Below, one piece after another: positions 23,718 through 50,937 of a stretch of DNA of 64,000 nucleotides (positions are counted from its first letter, which is position 1; each line of letters starts with the position of its first letter). A program made the translations under genes and the position numbers. The notes beneath the pieces are model-generated. The model made no database searches. It saw only the letters and a list, made by a program, of their open reading frames with translations, and was not told where the DNA came from. This DNA comes from a virus: positions 60,323 through 124,322 of the IMG/VR virus record IMGVR_UViG_3300035698_018475. The stretch is one strand, 5' to 3'.

Positions 23718-24455
23718 ATGAGTGATCCTATTATTAGTGTAATAGCTACCGCAGTTCATACTGAGTTTTGGCAGCAATTACATGCAAATTTAAGTAATGG
23801 TAATACCATACCATTTGAAATAGTATTTGTGGGGAATGTAAGACCAACCTTTGATCTACCAGAAAACTTCATATACATCTGTAGTGGAGCCAAACCGGTT
23901 CAATGTTTGGAAACCGCTTGTAGGAATGCCAGGGGTGAGTTTGTTATGATCATAGCGGACGATCACTTACCTCCTCCACAGATGTTGAATACTATGTATT
24001 CCTACGTACGTAGGATGATAAATAGCAAATGTGTTGTTGTGGCAAGATACATGGATGATATAGAGGACTGGATTCGTGATGAATTACTAAGTTTTTATGT
24101 ACATGGTGCCACTTTTATAGAGGTTAGTCCGGTTGTTGGAGTAAATACAGTCCTTCGGAGAAGTGTTTGGACTGAATTGGGTGGTTTAGATAAAAGGTTT
24201 ATATCGGTAAAATCTGATCTTGACATGCAGATGAGGTTCTATGAAGCTGGGGGACATCCTTTTATTGTTCCCACCTGTATAGTACGGGAAAGATCACATG
24301 ATACACGTGATAGATTATTAGATGCAAGTGGGGATACAGATCTAGAGACTCTACGTACTCTTTGGATAAAGGATGATATAATAAGTAGACAACGTTTAGG
24401 TAGTGTTCAATCTTTTACAAGTGATGAGATACCTATTGTTAGGGAGAGAAATTGA
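23718..24455 (+). CDS. Array glycosyltransferase 2 (GT2-like)
   Basis: 245 aa. Very close to copy 1 in the first third (HTEFWQQLHANLSNGNTIPF against HTEFWQQLHADLSNGNTIPF), with later divergence. The metal site is IIADDHLPPPQ. It shares the GLDKRF...DLDMQMRFYEAGGHP acceptor half with the other members. It has an AAAGG ribosome site and a 12-nt gap after copy 1. The recent pair suggests tandem duplication. Confidence 0.75.
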   Translation: MSDPIISVIATAVHTEFWQQLHANLSNGNTIPFEIVFVGNVRPTFDLPENFIYICSGAKPVQCLETACRNARGEFVMIIADDHLPPPQMLNTMYSYVRRMINSKCVVVARYMDDIEDWIRDELLSFYVHGATFIEVSPVVGVNTVLRRSVWTELGGLDKRFISVKSDLDMQMRFYEAGGHPFIVPTCIVRERSHDTRDRLLDASGDTDLETLRTLWIKDDIISRQRLGSVQSFTSDEIPIVRERN

Positions 24456-25174
24456 TGAGTACTCCAGTTATTAGTGTCATAGCTTCAGCAATTTTTACAC
24501 AATACTGGGAAGAACTATATGAGCAATTATCTCATAAGAACAAAATACCTTTTGAGATAGTATTTGTGGGAAATGTAAGACCAATCTTTCCTCTACCAGA
24601 AAACTTCATTCATATCTATAGCGAAACCAAACCGGTTCAGTGTTATGAGATAGCTGCTAGGAATGCTAAAGGGAAATTCTTAATGACTTGTCAAGACGAT
24701 TTAGTGTTTCCCGAAAAGTTTCTGAATGTCATGTATATGTATCTAGTTCGTATGCCTAATCCAGCGAAGATAGTTCTAACGCCAAGATTTAGTGATCGTT
24801 TGGATGGTCCACCACAAGATCAGTTGTTGAGTATATATCCAAACGATCTTGAATCGCCTATAGCAGGCGTTGGGACAATTTATAATCGACAATTATGGTA
24901 TGATCTGGGAGGGTTGGATAGAAGATTTAACTTATTATTCTACGACCTTGATATGATGATGAGGATATATGAAGCTGGGGGACATCCTTTTATTGTTCCC
25001 AGTTGTATTGTTCGAGAACGACTACGTGGTGATCGGCCAAGGTTGATTGATGACTATCATCCGGATAGAAAATTATTGTATGCACTTTGGTTATTACCCA
25101 GCGATAAGCTTAGTAAGACACGATTACTACCTCTTGAACCCTTTGGAAAAAATGAGATTTCAATAGTGAGGTAG
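24455..25174 (+). CDS. Array glycosyltransferase 3 (GT2-like)
   Basis: 239 aa from ATG 24455, which overlaps the TGA of copy 2; a TTG at 24452 is less likely. Same scheme: PVISVIASAIFTQYWEELYE, FEIVFVGNVRPIFPLPENF, CYEIAARNAKGKF, TCQDDLVFP as metal site and YDLDMMMRIYEAGGHPFIV. It ends NEISIVR like copies 1 and 2. The specificity loops (about 95-150) differ, as expected if paralogs use different donors or acceptors. Confidence 0.75.
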   Translation: MSTPVISVIASAIFTQYWEELYEQLSHKNKIPFEIVFVGNVRPIFPLPENFIHIYSETKPVQCYEIAARNAKGKFLMTCQDDLVFPEKFLNVMYMYLVRMPNPAKIVLTPRFSDRLDGPPQDQLLSIYPNDLESPIAGVGTIYNRQLWYDLGGLDRRFNLLFYDLDMMMRIYEAGGHPFIVPSCIVRERLRGDRPRLIDDYHPDRKLLYALWLLPSDKLSKTRLLPLEPFGKNEISIVR

Positions 25175-39646: not shown

Positions 39647-39675
39647 ATAATAAATTAGACTTTTATAAAAATCAA
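39647..39675 (-). promoter_or_regulatory. Sigma70-type promoter P1 with palindromic spacer
   Basis: On the minus strand: -35 TTGATT (39670-39675), 17-nt spacer, -10 TATTAT (39647-39652). The spacer region contains ATTTTTATAAAAGT, one mismatch from the shared palindrome ACTTTTATAAAAGT. It drives the HTH/sigma-like genes. Confidence 0.6.
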
Positions 39676-39695: not shown

Positions 39696-40178
39696 TCAAT
39701 AGGTGGGGGAACTTAATATTAGGTTTTTAGATATTACTTCTTTTGAAATAAAGAATTCATATAGTTCATACGATTCAGCAGAGTTCAAGTAAATCACTTC
39801 CTTAGTATGATCTGGCATCCAATCAATGATGTATCCCGGACTATGTAAGAAGTGGAATCTAATCTTTTCACAAGATACCATCCCTCGGTTTTTCTTCGAT
39901 CTTTTGATTAGAGTCAGTATTTTATCTATATCTTGTTGATCTCTAAAGGTTTTGTACATAGTCCATTGGTTGATGTCAAAGTCGTCCGGAGTACATATAT
40001 CAATCCGGGTGACTCTTGAAGTCTCATATTTGGACATAAGTTGTTGTAAAGATACTTCAGTATCCCATCTAGTATTACCCACTGGTGTGCCATCACAAGA
40101 GAATAATATGATACAAATTACAAGGATTGATCCTACCACTACTGCCACTGATATAAATCCTAAAATACGCCACAACAT
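39696..40178 (-). CDS. Membrane-anchored or lipoprotein, unknown
   Basis: 160 aa. Residues 5-27 are one hydrophobic segment ending IILFSC, a near-lipobox (LFSC) followed by Asp-Gly. The remainder is soluble and mixed alpha/beta with no known motif. AAGGAGCTAATT precedes the ATG. It could be a lipoprotein displayed in the envelope, possibly for superinfection exclusion; that is a guess from topology only. Confidence 0.6.
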   Translation of the reverse strand: MLWRILGFISVAVVVGSILVICIILFSCDGTPVGNTRWDTEVSLQQLMSKYETSRVTRIDICTPDDFDINQWTMYKTFRDQQDIDKILTLIKRSKKNRGMVSCEKIRFHFLHSPGYIIDWMPDHTKEVIYLNSAESYELYEFFISKEVISKNLILSSPTY

Positions 40179-40188
40179 AATTAGCTCC

Positions 40189-40461
40189 TTAACTGATTTT
40201 TATACCAAGTTCTTTGGCTTGTTTCTTAATTTCCGTCCAACCACAATCACATCGCTCGTCTACGTAACTGCCACTTCCTGATATCTCCGCATTGCATACG
40301 GGTCCGTGACCGCCCCGTTCTATCACCTCACTCAGTAGCTTGAGGGCGGCGTCGTTTTCATGTATAACTCTATCAGCTTCTGTTAGTATCCTATCCACAA
40401 AATTCCAAACTTTGTCATCGACTACATAAAATTTACCATCAATCGTTAAATAACTACTCAT
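40189..40461 (-). CDS. Small hypothetical protein
   Basis: 90 aa from ATG 40461 (GTG 40464 also in frame), with AAGGGACGA upstream. Features: TIDGKFYVVDDKVWNFVDRI, helical middle, and a Cys-rich end (PVCNAEI ... ERCDCGWTEI) that could bind a metal. No family recognised. Confidence 0.6.
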   Translation of the reverse strand: MSSYLTIDGKFYVVDDKVWNFVDRILTEADRVIHENDAALKLLSEVIERGGHGPVCNAEISGSGSYVDERCDCGWTEIKKQAKELGIKIS

Positions 40462-40471
40462 CACTCGTCCC

Positions 40472-42013
40472 TTACTTTGTTATACGTATTAGTTTTGAAT
40501 GTATTCCATAAGTACGAAATTTGTTTCCCGTTATATACCCATTTACTATATTTGTTGTTGCATAAGAGAATGCATTAAATACTGTATGAGCTTTCATCAA
40601 ATCGAAATAATACAAATATAACCACTGGGTCGATCCTTCCATGAAGTTACCGGGATATACCGGCTCCTTCCAGCCAATAAAGATCCCCCACTGGGTATCC
40701 CATAATCCAAGTGCATAAGCATAGTCAGTGTGAAGAGCAGAGTTACAGGCATCTATTTGAACATATTTGAATTTCTGTGTTTTCCAAATATCAAGAGAGG
40801 TCAAGAAGTAACCTTTATCCTCCCACTTTCCGGGGAGGTCGTCCCCTCCTGGTGGAGTCATGCTACCTGGGTGAGAGAATAGTCTTCCATCTTCTACTTC
40901 AATATAAGTTCTTTGAATATCTTGTACATGATAACTCCCATGTCCATGATGTATCCAAACTTTTGTCTTCGGACCAGATAAACAAGATAAAAGATTATCC
41001 CCTGTCAAGTGTTCATCATATAGTGTTATAAGATCATAGCCAAAACTTTTTAAGAGTGCTCTCTCTTTGAGTATAGTCTTAAATCTTGCTCTACCTACTT
41101 TGCTATTTTGTACACTCATAACTGCTTCTAAACTATTCATCTTACTTGCAGTTAGATTAGGTTTCTCCGAGCATACCTTTTCCCAATATTCTAACAAAAT
41201 ATCATTAGAACACATGGGTATATTAGGATCAGGTACATTAGGATCAGGTACATTAGGATCTACAACTTCAAAAAATTGTATTCGATAAAACCCTTCCATT
41301 GGAATACATGGATCTGAGATAGTTATTTCTATATCACCGCTATCATATTCTTGAGATTCCCAAAGGATAATATCATTTTCCCACTCATCCATATCTACTA
41401 TACGAAACTTTGCTTTATTATTTCCTATATAAGTAGTTATTATCTCAAAGTATTCTTCATAAGTATTACTAACGACGGTCTGATGAAATTTGTTATTGAA
41501 GTGGACAAATATAGATTGGGTTGCTATTACTCTGTCAAAAGTATTATAACAAATGACAGTTAAAATATGTTCTCCATTAGTATATAGGACAGATTCTAAT
41601 ATGCAAGAACTATCTATACCATCTCCTATATGAAGAGGTATATTATCTACGTGTATTTCATCTAATAGAAGATGGACGGTATCTACTCTTTCCTGATCAA
41701 TATCTTCAATCCAAATCTGTACATCTCCACTTATTGTATCAATAGGCTGATTAAGTTTGATATTAAATGGTAGGTTTATATTTAGATCTAAAAGATTCAC
41801 TATGCCATCTTCATTAAGATCATATATAGCACAGGTCGGACTATTCGGATCCAGGTAAATAGGTTGTTCTCTATCTTGAAGCCAACATCTTGAAAAAGGT
41901 AAGAAATCTTCAAAAGTAAGATTTTGTCCTTCTACTAGATTACAGGCAAAGAGTAGATAAAAGGCTAGGACTAAGAACAAAATTCTTTTTCTCTGTCTTT
42001 TATTAACCATCAT
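40472..42013 (-). CDS. Secreted clan CD (caspase/gingipain-like) protease candidate with dockerin-like repeat
   Basis: 513 aa. A lipoprotein-type signal (residues 10-24, ILFLVLAFYLLFAC) or a signal peptide cut after EG. At 61-80, CAIYDLNEDGIVNLLDLNIN resembles a dockerin EF-hand repeat. About 145-250: beta-sandwich-like; then a DPNVP linker (252-266). From about 270: KVWIHHGHGS (352-360) and KYVQIDACNSALH (416-428), the hydrophobic-block His-Gly and Ala-Cys pair of clan CD peptidases, with Cys 423. So it should be a secreted cysteine protease. Its own promoter is at 42037-42064. I know no named phage relative. Confidence 0.6.
   Translation of the reverse strand: MMVNKRQRKRILFLVLAFYLLFACNLVEGQNLTFEDFLPFSRCWLQDREQPIYLDPNSPTCAIYDLNEDGIVNLLDLNINLPFNIKLNQPIDTISGDVQIWIEDIDQERVDTVHLLLDEIHVDNIPLHIGDGIDSSCILESVLYTNGEHILTVICYNTFDRVIATQSIFVHFNNKFHQTVVSNTYEEYFEIITTYIGNNKAKFRIVDMDEWENDIILWESQEYDSGDIEITISDPCIPMEGFYRIQFFEVVDPNVPDPNVPDPNIPMCSNDILLEYWEKVCSEKPNLTASKMNSLEAVMSVQNSKVGRARFKTILKERALLKSFGYDLITLYDEHLTGDNLLSCLSGPKTKVWIHHGHGSYHVQDIQRTYIEVEDGRLFSHPGSMTPPGGDDLPGKWEDKGYFLTSLDIWKTQKFKYVQIDACNSALHTDYAYALGLWDTQWGIFIGWKEPVYPGNFMEGSTQWLYLYYFDLMKAHTVFNAFSYATTNIVNGYITGNKFRTYGIHSKLIRITK
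41215..41262 (-). repeat. Short tandem repeat coding for DPNVP linker
   Basis: A 15-nt unit (TTAGGATCAGGTACA on the plus strand) repeats about three times at 41218-41262, with the last unit changed. It encodes the VDPNVP/DPNVP/DPNIP linker between the N-terminal domains and the protease domain. Length could vary by slippage. Confidence 0.75.
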
Positions 42014-42036: not shown

Positions 42037-42064
42037 ATTATAGCTCTAATTTTATAAAAGTCAA
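42037..42064 (-). promoter_or_regulatory. Sigma70-type promoter P2 with palindromic spacer
   Basis: Minus strand: -35 TTGACT (42059-42064), 16-nt spacer, -10 TATAAT (42037-42042). The site includes ACTTTTATAAAATT, one mismatch from the shared palindrome. It starts just before the protease gene, whose ATG at 42013 follows AGGAGATC. Confidence 0.7.
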
Positions 42065-42070
42065 GTCTGG

Positions 42071-43849
42071 TTAGTGGATAATTCTTCGTCTTTTTGGTCT
42101 TTTTTCCTCTTTATTATCTCTTGCTACCTTTCTTTTAATCATACGTACTGCCTTTGCATCGTCTTCACTTAAAGATCTGTTCCATTTATTTTTTAACTTC
42201 CACCATTCAACAGCGGACCAAATCTTATCTTTGTCTACCTTTAATTGATCCGATATGAGTCTTACTAACCCTTTTTCTCTCTCTAACTCTTCTAGTCTCA
42301 TCCTTTTTATATTCTTTAATATAGAAAGAACCTCTAAATAATTTCCCCTATCTATCCTACTATTGACATAGTAATCTATATCCTCTAACTCTATCTGATC
42401 ATAATTAAGAACAAACCAGTAATCGGCCCCTATCCAAAACGTCACCCTCTTCTTCCTATCATAACTATCATCATAACGACGCCAAACTGAATCACCTGGC
42501 ATGTATAAAAAGCCAAACTTATCATCTTCTTGCTTCGAGATAGTATATATCCCTTTACCAGGAGAGGAAAGGAATCTATATTGATAGGCTACATAAGAGC
42601 CTATTGATCCAGATCTTAATTCATCACACCAACCATAAGGCAAACCACAAAAGTAGATCCTAGAACCTATCTTGATCTTACTATTGGTCTTCTCGTGCCA
42701 ATCCTTATATAGTAACGTCCCATCAGATAAACTTGGCTCATCATCCCTAATCAATTTTATACGATCCTGATAAGTAGAAGGATCCGCTAACTGAATTCCG
42801 AAAGGTTTAGGATCTAAAATAGCTGTTCTATCTAACAGACCCTGCAACATTATCATCTGCTTCTTATACTCCATCTCCTCTTCTTCAACACGTTCTAGAC
42901 CACCAAACCTATCACTTTTTATCTTTTCAAATTCATCATTAGAAGGGAATAATCTATGACCTATAGATATGTCACTCCATATACGATACACATTATTACC
43001 ATTTCTTATCAAAATATATGTACAATGATTCTCCATATTATTAAAGCAATTGAGAATAGCTTCCCCATAATCTTTATCCTTCCTCCTTATCCTCATACAT
43101 ACAATCCCTTTCTTCTCAGGGAGGATCTTTCCCATATTCTCCCCTGATAATAACCATTCATCAAACTTATGCACCCCCCTAAAATCTAAACCTTGATCTT
43201 CAACAACACCTACCTCCTCATCCATATATAGTCTCTGCTGATGTATACAAATAGGCTCTGACTCTTCACATGCAACCCCTTCTTGTATTTGAACAATCTC
43301 TTCCTCTATTCCTAAATACAATTCTATAATGCCTATAACTTTACATACCTTCTCCATCTTCTCCTTCTGCTCATGCAAGACAGAAAGCAAAGCATTACTC
43401 TTCCTTTCTAATAATGCTCTCATGATATTATACCGATCCATCCTACTTTGTATATCACCTTTTACTCTTTCCAATTGACCAGGATCGGCTCGTACAGCTA
43501 ATGCCGTTTCATCTACTTCCTCTTCTACACTCTCCTCTTCTTCATCAAACTCACCAATCTTTTGGAAAGTAGATTTTTCAAATTGGTCTACAAAAGAGTC
43601 GAAGTCCTCTTTCTTTTTTATATGACCTATAACAACAAATCTTTCCTGAAATTCCTCAAATTCAATCTTACCATAGGTACTCCAACCTTCTTCATACTCA
43701 ACTATCAGATGTATAGTTTTTCTTACACTTTTAACCAAAAAGATACTTCCCCTTGATATTTCTATAACCACATCATTAGACTTAGGAAGATTACTCTTGT
43801 CTATTGATAACGAAGACTTAGCTTTACTTATTTTAGTCTTACCTGACAT
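42071..43849 (-). CDS. Large hypothetical coiled-coil protein
   Basis: 592 aa, very charged. Order: basic N-terminal tail, a small beta-rich domain (40-90), an acidic Glu-rich stretch (100-120), a long coiled coil (about 125-195), a mixed central domain (240-400), a second mixed domain with aromatic patches (400-500), and a basic Lys/Arg C-terminus (RRRIIH). No enzyme motif or signal peptide. It does not resemble a family I know. It lies upstream of the secreted protease gene but has its own weaker start cassette. Confidence 0.6.
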   Translation of the reverse strand: MSGKTKISKAKSSLSIDKSNLPKSNDVVIEISRGSIFLVKSVRKTIHLIVEYEEGWSTYGKIEFEEFQERFVVIGHIKKKEDFDSFVDQFEKSTFQKIGEFDEEEESVEEEVDETALAVRADPGQLERVKGDIQSRMDRYNIMRALLERKSNALLSVLHEQKEKMEKVCKVIGIIELYLGIEEEIVQIQEGVACEESEPICIHQQRLYMDEEVGVVEDQGLDFRGVHKFDEWLLSGENMGKILPEKKGIVCMRIRRKDKDYGEAILNCFNNMENHCTYILIRNGNNVYRIWSDISIGHRLFPSNDEFEKIKSDRFGGLERVEEEEMEYKKQMIMLQGLLDRTAILDPKPFGIQLADPSTYQDRIKLIRDDEPSLSDGTLLYKDWHEKTNSKIKIGSRIYFCGLPYGWCDELRSGSIGSYVAYQYRFLSSPGKGIYTISKQEDDKFGFLYMPGDSVWRRYDDSYDRKKRVTFWIGADYWFVLNYDQIELEDIDYYVNSRIDRGNYLEVLSILKNIKRMRLEELEREKGLVRLISDQLKVDKDKIWSAVEWWKLKNKWNRSLSEDDAKAVRMIKRKVARDNKEEKRPKRRRIIH

Positions 43850-44499: not shown

Positions 44500-45060
44500 T
44501 TACTCTGTTCTATCCTCTAATCTAGCCAGGTCCTTTTTTACTCTTTTTTCCATAGTTGCGAGTTCATCTGCTCTTTGATCCAATTGTTTGAAGGTCCTAC
44601 TATCTCCAGACTCTCTTATTTCGACTCCCATGGATAGACCAATCACTTTACTTTCAAGTTGTTGTACTCCAAGAAGTTCATTAAGTCCCCTAGCAAAGTG
44701 ATAGCGTATTCTTGCAATAACTTTATCTGCCTCTATCAGACCAATATCGTACAGTATATATAATTGTTCATCTCCACCGGTTCTTACAAAGAGATGGTCC
44801 ATTCCATGCCGAACACAGTTCTTGGCTGTTGTCGCAGCTAATAAAAGAACAGCATCTCCTTTATGGTGCCCAAGAGTGTCATTAACAATTTTGAGATTGT
44901 CAACATCTACTCTAATGAAAGCCATGGGCACCTTTTGTTCATCCGCTTTGACAAACAGATGATGAACTAGACTCTTTGCATGGGATGGTACGGTCAATCC
45001 AGTAGTATCATCAGTAGTTAGTTTTTGCCATTGTTCTTCAGTTATTGTTTTTGTCTTCAT
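44500..45060 (-). CDS. GGDEF-domain (diguanylate cyclase-like) protein
   Basis: 186 aa. The DDTTGLTV stretch (17-24) corresponds to the usual DxLTGLxN start, VDVDNLKIVNDTLGHHKGD (51-69) holds the metal-binding and substrate residues, and FVRTGGDEQLYIL (91-103) is the active site with GGDEQ in place of GGDEF. VIGLSMGVEI (134-143) fits the late strand. There is no sensor domain beyond about 30 residues. It might make c-di-GMP or another cyclic nucleotide in the infected cell; the last residue change leaves activity uncertain. Confidence 0.75.
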   Translation of the reverse strand: MKTKTITEEQWQKLTTDDTTGLTVPSHAKSLVHHLFVKADEQKVPMAFIRVDVDNLKIVNDTLGHHKGDAVLLLAATTAKNCVRHGMDHLFVRTGGDEQLYILYDIGLIEADKVIARIRYHFARGLNELLGVQQLESKVIGLSMGVEIRESGDSRTFKQLDQRADELATMEKRVKKDLARLEDRTE

Positions 45061-46877: not shown

Positions 46878-46906
46878 ATTATAACCTATACTTTTATAAA
46901 AGTCAA
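46878..46906 (-). promoter_or_regulatory. Sigma70-type promoter P3 with perfect 14-bp palindrome
   Basis: Minus strand: -35 TTGACT (46901-46906), 17-nt spacer, -10 TATAAT (46878-46883). Perfect palindrome ACTTTTATAAAAGT at 46890-46903, overlapping -35 and spacer. It drives the DUF4926-like and following genes. Confidence 0.75.
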
Positions 46907-50908: not shown

Positions 50909-50937
50909 ATTATAGCATATACTTTTATAAAAGTCAA
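50909..50937 (-). promoter_or_regulatory. Sigma70-type promoter P4 with perfect 14-bp palindrome
   Basis: Minus strand: -35 TTGACT (50932-50937), 17-nt spacer, -10 TATAAT (50909-50914). Palindrome ACTTTTATAAAAGT at 50921-50934. It reads into the structured leader and the small-gene block. Confidence 0.75.

What the first reader, a model, noticed from the sequence alone, without database searches (positions are those of the whole stretch)
40472..42013. Phage gene for a secreted caspase/gingipain-like protease with dockerin-like and DPNVP linker modules
The protein combines a lipoprotein-type signal, an EF-hand dockerin-like segment (61-80), a DPNVP repeat linker and a C-terminal domain with the clan CD signature: hydrophobic block plus HHGHG, then hydrophobic block plus DACNS. 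Secreted clan CD proteases are rare in phages; it has its own promoter and lies in the early-type block. It might act at the cell envelope: superinfection exclusion, lysis aid, or interference with host surface proteins. It may point to a Planctomycetes-type host. The protease call is inference from the two motifs.
Basis: partly seen in the sequence, partly recalled or inferred. Interest (0 to 1): 0.78.

Follow-up and report, generated by a model that had tools for sequence, protein, structure and literature searches.

The report
Early phage secreted caspase-like protease candidate
An uncultivated T4-like phage carries, behind one of its own early-type promoters, a gene for an exported protein that joins a calcium-loop docking-type module to what looks like a caspase/gingipain-type protease domain; no relative of the protease part was found, so the protease identity rests on motifs and gene context and has no fold or homology behind it yet.

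Summary
The ORF is real: 513 aa, MINUS strand, 40472-42013. It has an export signal, one EF-hand/dockerin-like loop, a (DPN[VI]P)x3 linker, and a C-terminal domain with hydrophobic block + HHGHG, then hydrophobic block + DACNS, the published clan CD layout (His-Gly ... Ala-Cys). No other ORF of at least 150 aa among 694 fetched phage ORFs has this motif pair; shuffles gave none. Membership in a clan CD family is NOT shown: Pfam, NCBIfam, PADLOC and PDB sequence searches, and tblastn of phages and plasmids, gave nothing significant; pattern scans of IMG/VR and GTDB genomes found no relative; two AlphaFold runs without an alignment failed (pLDDT 32-33). Context strengthens the idea: the gene sits 24 nt behind one of three near-identical early promoters (CTTGACTTTTATAAAA...TATAAT) and leads a tight three-gene unit ending in a membrane/lipoprotein gene. 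A second secreted phage protein and a small secreted protein of another phage contig carry the same dockerin-like module, a recurring decoration of exported phage proteins. Best reading: an early, envelope-targeted cysteine peptidase acting on host surface proteins (superinfection exclusion or envelope remodelling). The host looks dockerin-using, possibly Planctomycetota, but is unproven.

The parts
40472..42013 (-). 513-aa ORF: exported modular protein, candidate clan CD-type cysteine peptidase
41927..42013 (-). export signal, residues 1-29: basic n-region, hydrophobic core, LFAC lipobox-like (Cys24) or VEG|Q type I site
   Evidence: sequence; hydrophobicity; no signal-peptide predictor available
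41762..41926 (-). dockerin-like module, residues 30-84 (half repeat F..F...WL + C...DLNEDGIVNLLD)
   Evidence: Dockerin_1 E=0.065; BLASTP E=2e-6 to L075:2706-2894 over residues 40-79; same motif in L003:4243-4761
41786..41821 (-). EF-hand-type calcium loop DLNEDGIVNLLD, residues 65-76
   Evidence: only two such loops in the genome
41264..41758 (-). residues 86-250, probably two Ig-like beta domains (inference)
   Evidence: weak phrog_9391 match 114-169, E=0.003
41216..41260 (-). DPNVP-DPNVP-DPNIP linker, residues 252-266
   Evidence: triple linker pattern without a match in genome contigs and viral contigs
40514..41146 (-). C-terminal domain, residues 290-500, alternating alpha/beta pattern, candidate caspase-haemoglobinase-like domain
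   Evidence: motifs and layout; fold not confirmed
40937..40951 (-). HHGHG, residues 355-359: candidate catalytic His358 (or His356)
40739..40753 (-). DACNS, residues 421-425: candidate nucleophile Cys423
42037..42064 (-). early-type promoter TTGACTTTTATAAAATTAGAGCTATAAT, 24 nt before the ATG
46878..46906 (-). second copy of the promoter family
50909..50937 (-). third copy of the promoter family
39647..39675 (-). diverged fourth copy (TTGATTTTTATAAAA...TATTAT), marks the end of the protease unit
40189..40464 (-). 91-aa ORF with Cys/His-rich segment (GHGPVC...CDCG), 7 nt after the protease; probably cotranscribed
39696..40178 (-). 160-aa membrane protein or lipoprotein (...ILFSC), 10 nt further; probably cotranscribed, possible partner
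   Evidence: no phage match

Best explanation
An early phage gene makes a protein exported by the host Sec system and held at the cell envelope, either by lipidation at Cys24 or through its dockerin-like calcium module. Two probably Ig-like domains and a DPN[VI]P linker hold a C-terminal caspase/haemoglobinase-type cysteine peptidase (His358/Cys423) away from the membrane. It cleaves host surface or periplasmic proteins early in infection, most likely to alter receptors or surface layers (superinfection exclusion, envelope remodelling). Shown: the ORF, the motif pair, the dockerin-like module in a second protein of this phage and in another phage contig, the promoter family, the compact three-gene arrangement. 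Inferred: export, fold, peptidase activity, early timing (from host-type promoters and block position), target.
For: Motif pair with hydrophobic blocks, as published for clan CD (PMC2772863; [quoted passage not shown] PMC4357240 dyad at the ends of strands beta3 and beta4), unique among 694 ORFs. Three-element order shared with a real C14 protein. Export signal plus extracytoplasmic-type modules. Own copy of an early promoter family and an AGGAG ribosome site. Dockerin joined to gingipain-like C25 is known in Cloacimonadota (PMC8542988), and cohesin/dockerin peptidase complexes are proposed in Planctomycetes (PMC6461901). A phage-derived secreted protease/lipoprotein pair that changes the cell wall is known (PMC8235301).
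Against: No significant family, PDB or homology match anywhere. No fold. Single-sequence HMM comparison with a CHAT protein was no better than shuffles (the intended C14 target was mis-selected there). The His-Cys gap of 65 residues is longer than the 42-49 of caspase-7, PmC11, MARTX-CPD and YabG, so an insertion is needed. With no relatives, conservation of His and Cys cannot be checked. No cohesin was looked for in a host.
Confidence: 0.5

Rival explanations
1. The C-terminal domain has the caspase-like fold but works inside its own pathway: it matures itself or the neighbouring 160-aa membrane protein (protease plus lipoprotein substrate/inhibitor pair), and the pair weakens the envelope for lysis.
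For: Compact unit with 7- and 10-nt gaps and a separate promoter after it; precedent of the Listeria phage metzincin/TIMP-like pair.
Against: Promoter family and block suggest early expression, whereas lysis is late; the 160-aa protein has no known relatives and no TIMP similarity was tested.
Confidence: 0.15
2. A non-peptidase surface protein: a binding or decoy domain (receptor masking, adhesion) whose HHGHG and DACNS are coincidental or structural.
For: No homology to any peptidase; no fold.
Against: Motif pair with both hydrophobic blocks not reached by shuffles; alpha/beta-like layout with three collinear elements.
Confidence: 0.25
3. A recently captured host secretome gene (moron) of no special use to the phage; a host-type dockerin peptidase carried along.
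For: Host-like modular build; absent from all 11 related records searched, several of them fragments; lower GC (0.340, GC3 0.245) than the window's mean gene GC of 0.381.
Against: It carries the phage's own early promoter and sits in a tight unit; neighbouring early genes are about as AT-rich; no host copy found in GTDB by patterns.
Confidence: 0.1

Closest known systems
Clan CD cysteine peptidases (C14, C25, C11, C13, CHAT; caspase/haemoglobinase fold)
   Same: Hydrophobic block + His-Gly, then hydrophobic block + Ala-Cys; alpha/beta layout inferred from sequence
   Different: No family match; 65-residue His-Cys spacing; N-terminal dockerin-like and probably Ig-like modules; phage gene
Dockerin-bearing C25 (gingipain-like) peptidases of Cloacimonadota ('Ca. 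Stygibacter', PMC8542988) and the proposed planctosome (PMC6461901)
   Same: Secreted peptidase joined to a dockerin-type module
   Different: Those are cellular, with C-terminal dockerins (Stygibacter) or metallopeptidases (planctosome); here a phage gene, module at the N-terminus and with a single EF loop
Phage-derived metzincin Mtz and TIMP-like lipoprotein Tim of Listeria (PMC8235301)
   Same: Secreted phage-origin protease next to a membrane/lipoprotein gene
   Different: Metzincin metalloprotease, unrelated type, Gram-positive host, lysogenic-switch control
Superinfection-exclusion lipoproteins such as Ltp of TP-J34 (PMC3952083, abstract only)
   Same: Phage-encoded, surface-exposed lipoprotein
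   Different: Not described as a protease; temperate phage; no sequence relation tested

Membership tests
Clan CD cysteine peptidase | His-Gly after a hydrophobic block, Ala-Cys after a second hydrophobic block, in that order | tested here: met
   KVWI-HHGHG 355-359, YVQI-DAC 421-423; definition
Clan CD cysteine peptidase | Caspase/haemoglobinase fold with dyad at the ends of beta3 and beta4 | tested here: inconclusive
   AlphaFold without alignment pLDDT 32-33; Foldseek on such a model is meaningless
Clan CD cysteine peptidase | Significant match to a clan CD family profile or solved structure | tested here: not met
   Pfam, NCBIfam, PADLOC, PDB. MEROPS clans are defined by structure, and members may lack sequence similarity
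Clan CD cysteine peptidase | His and Cys conserved across homologues; proteolytic activity | not testable with these tools
   No homologue found
Peptidase family C25 (gingipain) | Match to PF01364 | tested here: not met
Dockerin type I | Duplicated EF-hand segments; match over the PF00404 cut-off | tested here: not met
   One EF loop, 13.9 bits against cut-off 22.9
Phage dockerin-like secreted module (seen here) | Signal peptide plus D.N.DG.V[ND]..D loop after a Cys | tested here: met
   L003:4243-4761, L075:2706-2894, L076:5258-6169
Lipoprotein | Lipobox [LVI][ASTVI][GAS]C | tested here: inconclusive
   LFAC has Phe at -2; VEG|Q is an alternative type I site; the 160-aa neighbour has LFSC

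The most novel reading that the evidence does not exclude
A new clan CD family, phage-encoded, delivered to the host surface through a dockerin-like module so that it plugs into the host's own cohesin scaffold and trims surface proteins early in infection.
Probability: 0.15. Interest if true: 0.85.

Novelty: new variant of a known kind. Interest (0 to 1): 0.5.

Why it matters
If right, a phage exports a caspase/gingipain-type protease early in infection, with a docking-type module like those of hosts that build cohesin/dockerin complexes. That would be an unusual way for a phage to rework its host's surface, and a handle on phages of poorly cultured, dockerin-rich bacteria. The dockerin-like module on several exported phage proteins could also serve as a host marker.

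Tried and rejected
(1) Relatives by peptide pattern in viral contigs and genome contigs: none. (2) HGHG...DACN and [IV]DACNSA DNA patterns in viral contigs: all hits out of frame, broken by stops or clear chance. (3) Triple DPN linker in both collections: none. (4) tblastn of the protein and of the dockerin segment in phages and plasmids: nothing significant. (5) AlphaFold without alignment, twice, and Foldseek: useless. (6) Single-sequence hhalign with a CHAT protein no better than shuffles; pairwise alignment badly posed (free end gaps), no weight given. (7) Planctomycete genome search: no cellular genome handle could be obtained, so the host claim stays untested. (8) One search printed randomised copies of the domain meant as search decoys; they were not used. 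(9) alpha/beta hydrolase reading of HGHG rejected: the nucleophile context is DACNS, not G-x-C/S-x-G (established knowledge).

Full report
WHAT IS THERE. The window is bases 60323-124322 of a 124,322-base IMG/VR virus record. The record encodes a T4-like major head protein, a head maturation protease, a DNA polymerase, a primase and a DnaB-type helicase, so it is a T4-like tailed phage. The finding is a 513-aa ORF on the minus strand, 42013 to 40472. Its motifs are all present at the stated residues.

ARCHITECTURE. Residues 1-29 form an export signal; cleavage could be at a lipobox-like LFAC (Cys24) or after VEG. Residues 30-84 hold a half repeat (F..F...CWL) followed by C...DLNEDGIVNLLD, one EF-hand loop. 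Pfam Dockerin_1 sees it only at E=0.065. The same module occurs in a second exported protein of this phage, the 172-aa lipoprotein L003:4243-4761 (LVGC lipobox), and these two are the only such loops found in the genome. A scan of viral contigs for the loop pattern found five contigs. L075 holds a 62-aa exported protein (contig with terminase-like neighbours by inspection) that matches residues 40-79 of the finding at BLASTP E=2e-6, and L076 a signal + EF loop + LamG-like protein. So the module is a recurring decoration of exported phage proteins. Residues 86-250 look like Ig-type beta domains (inference; weak phrog_9391 match). Then comes the DPN[VI]P linker and the C-terminal domain.

THE PROTEASE CLAIM. 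Clan CD is recognised by His-Gly and Ala-Cys, each after a hydrophobic block, on strands beta3 and beta4 of the caspase fold. Here they are KVWI-HHGHG and YVQI-DACNS. In 694 phage ORFs of at least 150 aa only this one has the pair; shuffled sets have none. Adding GY-x-hydrophobic upstream leaves only this ORF (0.19 expected per shuffled set) and also matches a real C14 caspase-type protein, though that signature was drawn up after seeing both. The His-Cys distance, 65, is longer than the 42-49 of caspase-7, PmC11, MARTX-CPD and YabG (residue numbers), so an insertion is implied. Against the claim, no profile, structure or sequence search gives a significant match, and no relative was found in viral, genomic, phage or plasmid collections with the methods allowed. 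AlphaFold without an alignment failed twice. I therefore put the caspase-type fold at about two in three, and the full functional explanation at one half.

CONTEXT AND REGULATION. The gene starts 24 nt after CTTGACTTTTATAAAA-TTAGAGC-TATAAT. Two more copies, identical in CTTGACTTTTATAAAA and TATAAT, lie at 46906-46878 and 50937-50909, and a diverged one at 39675-39647, all on the minus strand of the non-structural block. Fifteen-base matches with up to 3 mismatches number 18 against 8.2 expected, with no shuffle reaching 18; part of that excess is the palindrome-like core being counted on both strands. The protease, a 91-aa Cys/His protein and a 160-aa membrane protein or lipoprotein follow each other with gaps of 7 and 10 nt and end just before the fourth promoter, so they probably form one transcription unit. 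Eleven other IMG/VR records share head and tail genes (46-55% identity in the major head protein for the closer ones), but none has the protease, and almost nothing of the minus-strand block is shared. Several of those records are fragments, so absence there is weak evidence.

MECHANISM. A sigma70-type promoter in the early-type block, an export signal and a calcium-type module point to an enzyme placed at the host envelope before lysis. Altering surface proteins, for superinfection exclusion or envelope remodelling, fits best. Cellular precedents join dockerins to gingipain-like C25 peptidases and propose cohesin/dockerin peptidase complexes in Planctomycetes. A phage-derived secreted protease with a lipoprotein partner alters the cell wall in Listeria. 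The host is not known. I recall the C...DLN.DG.VN module and DPN linkers from Planctomycetota secretomes, but could not test it: no planctomycete genome could be searched, and the exact triple linker pattern has no match in the GTDB genome collection.

NOVELTY. Two exemplar clan CD proteins (C14, CHAT) hit no PHROG family, and literature searches in the held library brought up no phage dockerin protein and no phage gingipain-type protease (titles and abstracts only). So if the protease call holds, this is an uncommon phage variant of a known kind; if not, it is an orphan exported phage protein.

Noticed in passing
window 44500-45060 (-): Stand-alone GGDEF domain protein (Pfam E=4e-20) with a TGGDEQ motif: a phage-encoded diguanylate-cyclase-like protein in the same block as the finding.
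   Followed up: partly
window 50909-50937, 46878-46906, 42037-42064, 39647-39675 (-): A phage early-promoter family with conserved spacer, CTTGACTTTTATAAAA...TATAAT.
   Followed up: yes
L003:4243-4761 (record bases 24243-24761): 172-aa exported lipoprotein with C-terminal dockerin-like loop, in a row of three exported proteins (L003:3573-4761) behind a membrane protein.
   Followed up: partly
L075:2706-2894, L076:5258-6169, L074:7949-8851: Other viral contigs with a hydrophobic N-terminal stretch plus single dockerin-like loop; L075 also encodes an exported protein that reads like a polysaccharide deacetylase (inspection only).
   Followed up: partly
window 14038-38556 (+): About 24 kb of glycosyltransferase-like and sugar-epimerase/SDR-like genes, several of them close paralogues (KPVISIY.PSI.PE.WM...): a large glycan block in a phage. 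From inspection only.
   Followed up: no
window 42071-43849 (-): 592-aa protein, residues 193-437 matched in Flavobacterium phage MaF61 (E=1e-28) and in part in two other large phages; no Pfam or PHROG family.
   Followed up: partly
L002:4981-5682: QueC-like queuosine biosynthesis protein (phrog_1550, E=5e-29).
   Followed up: no
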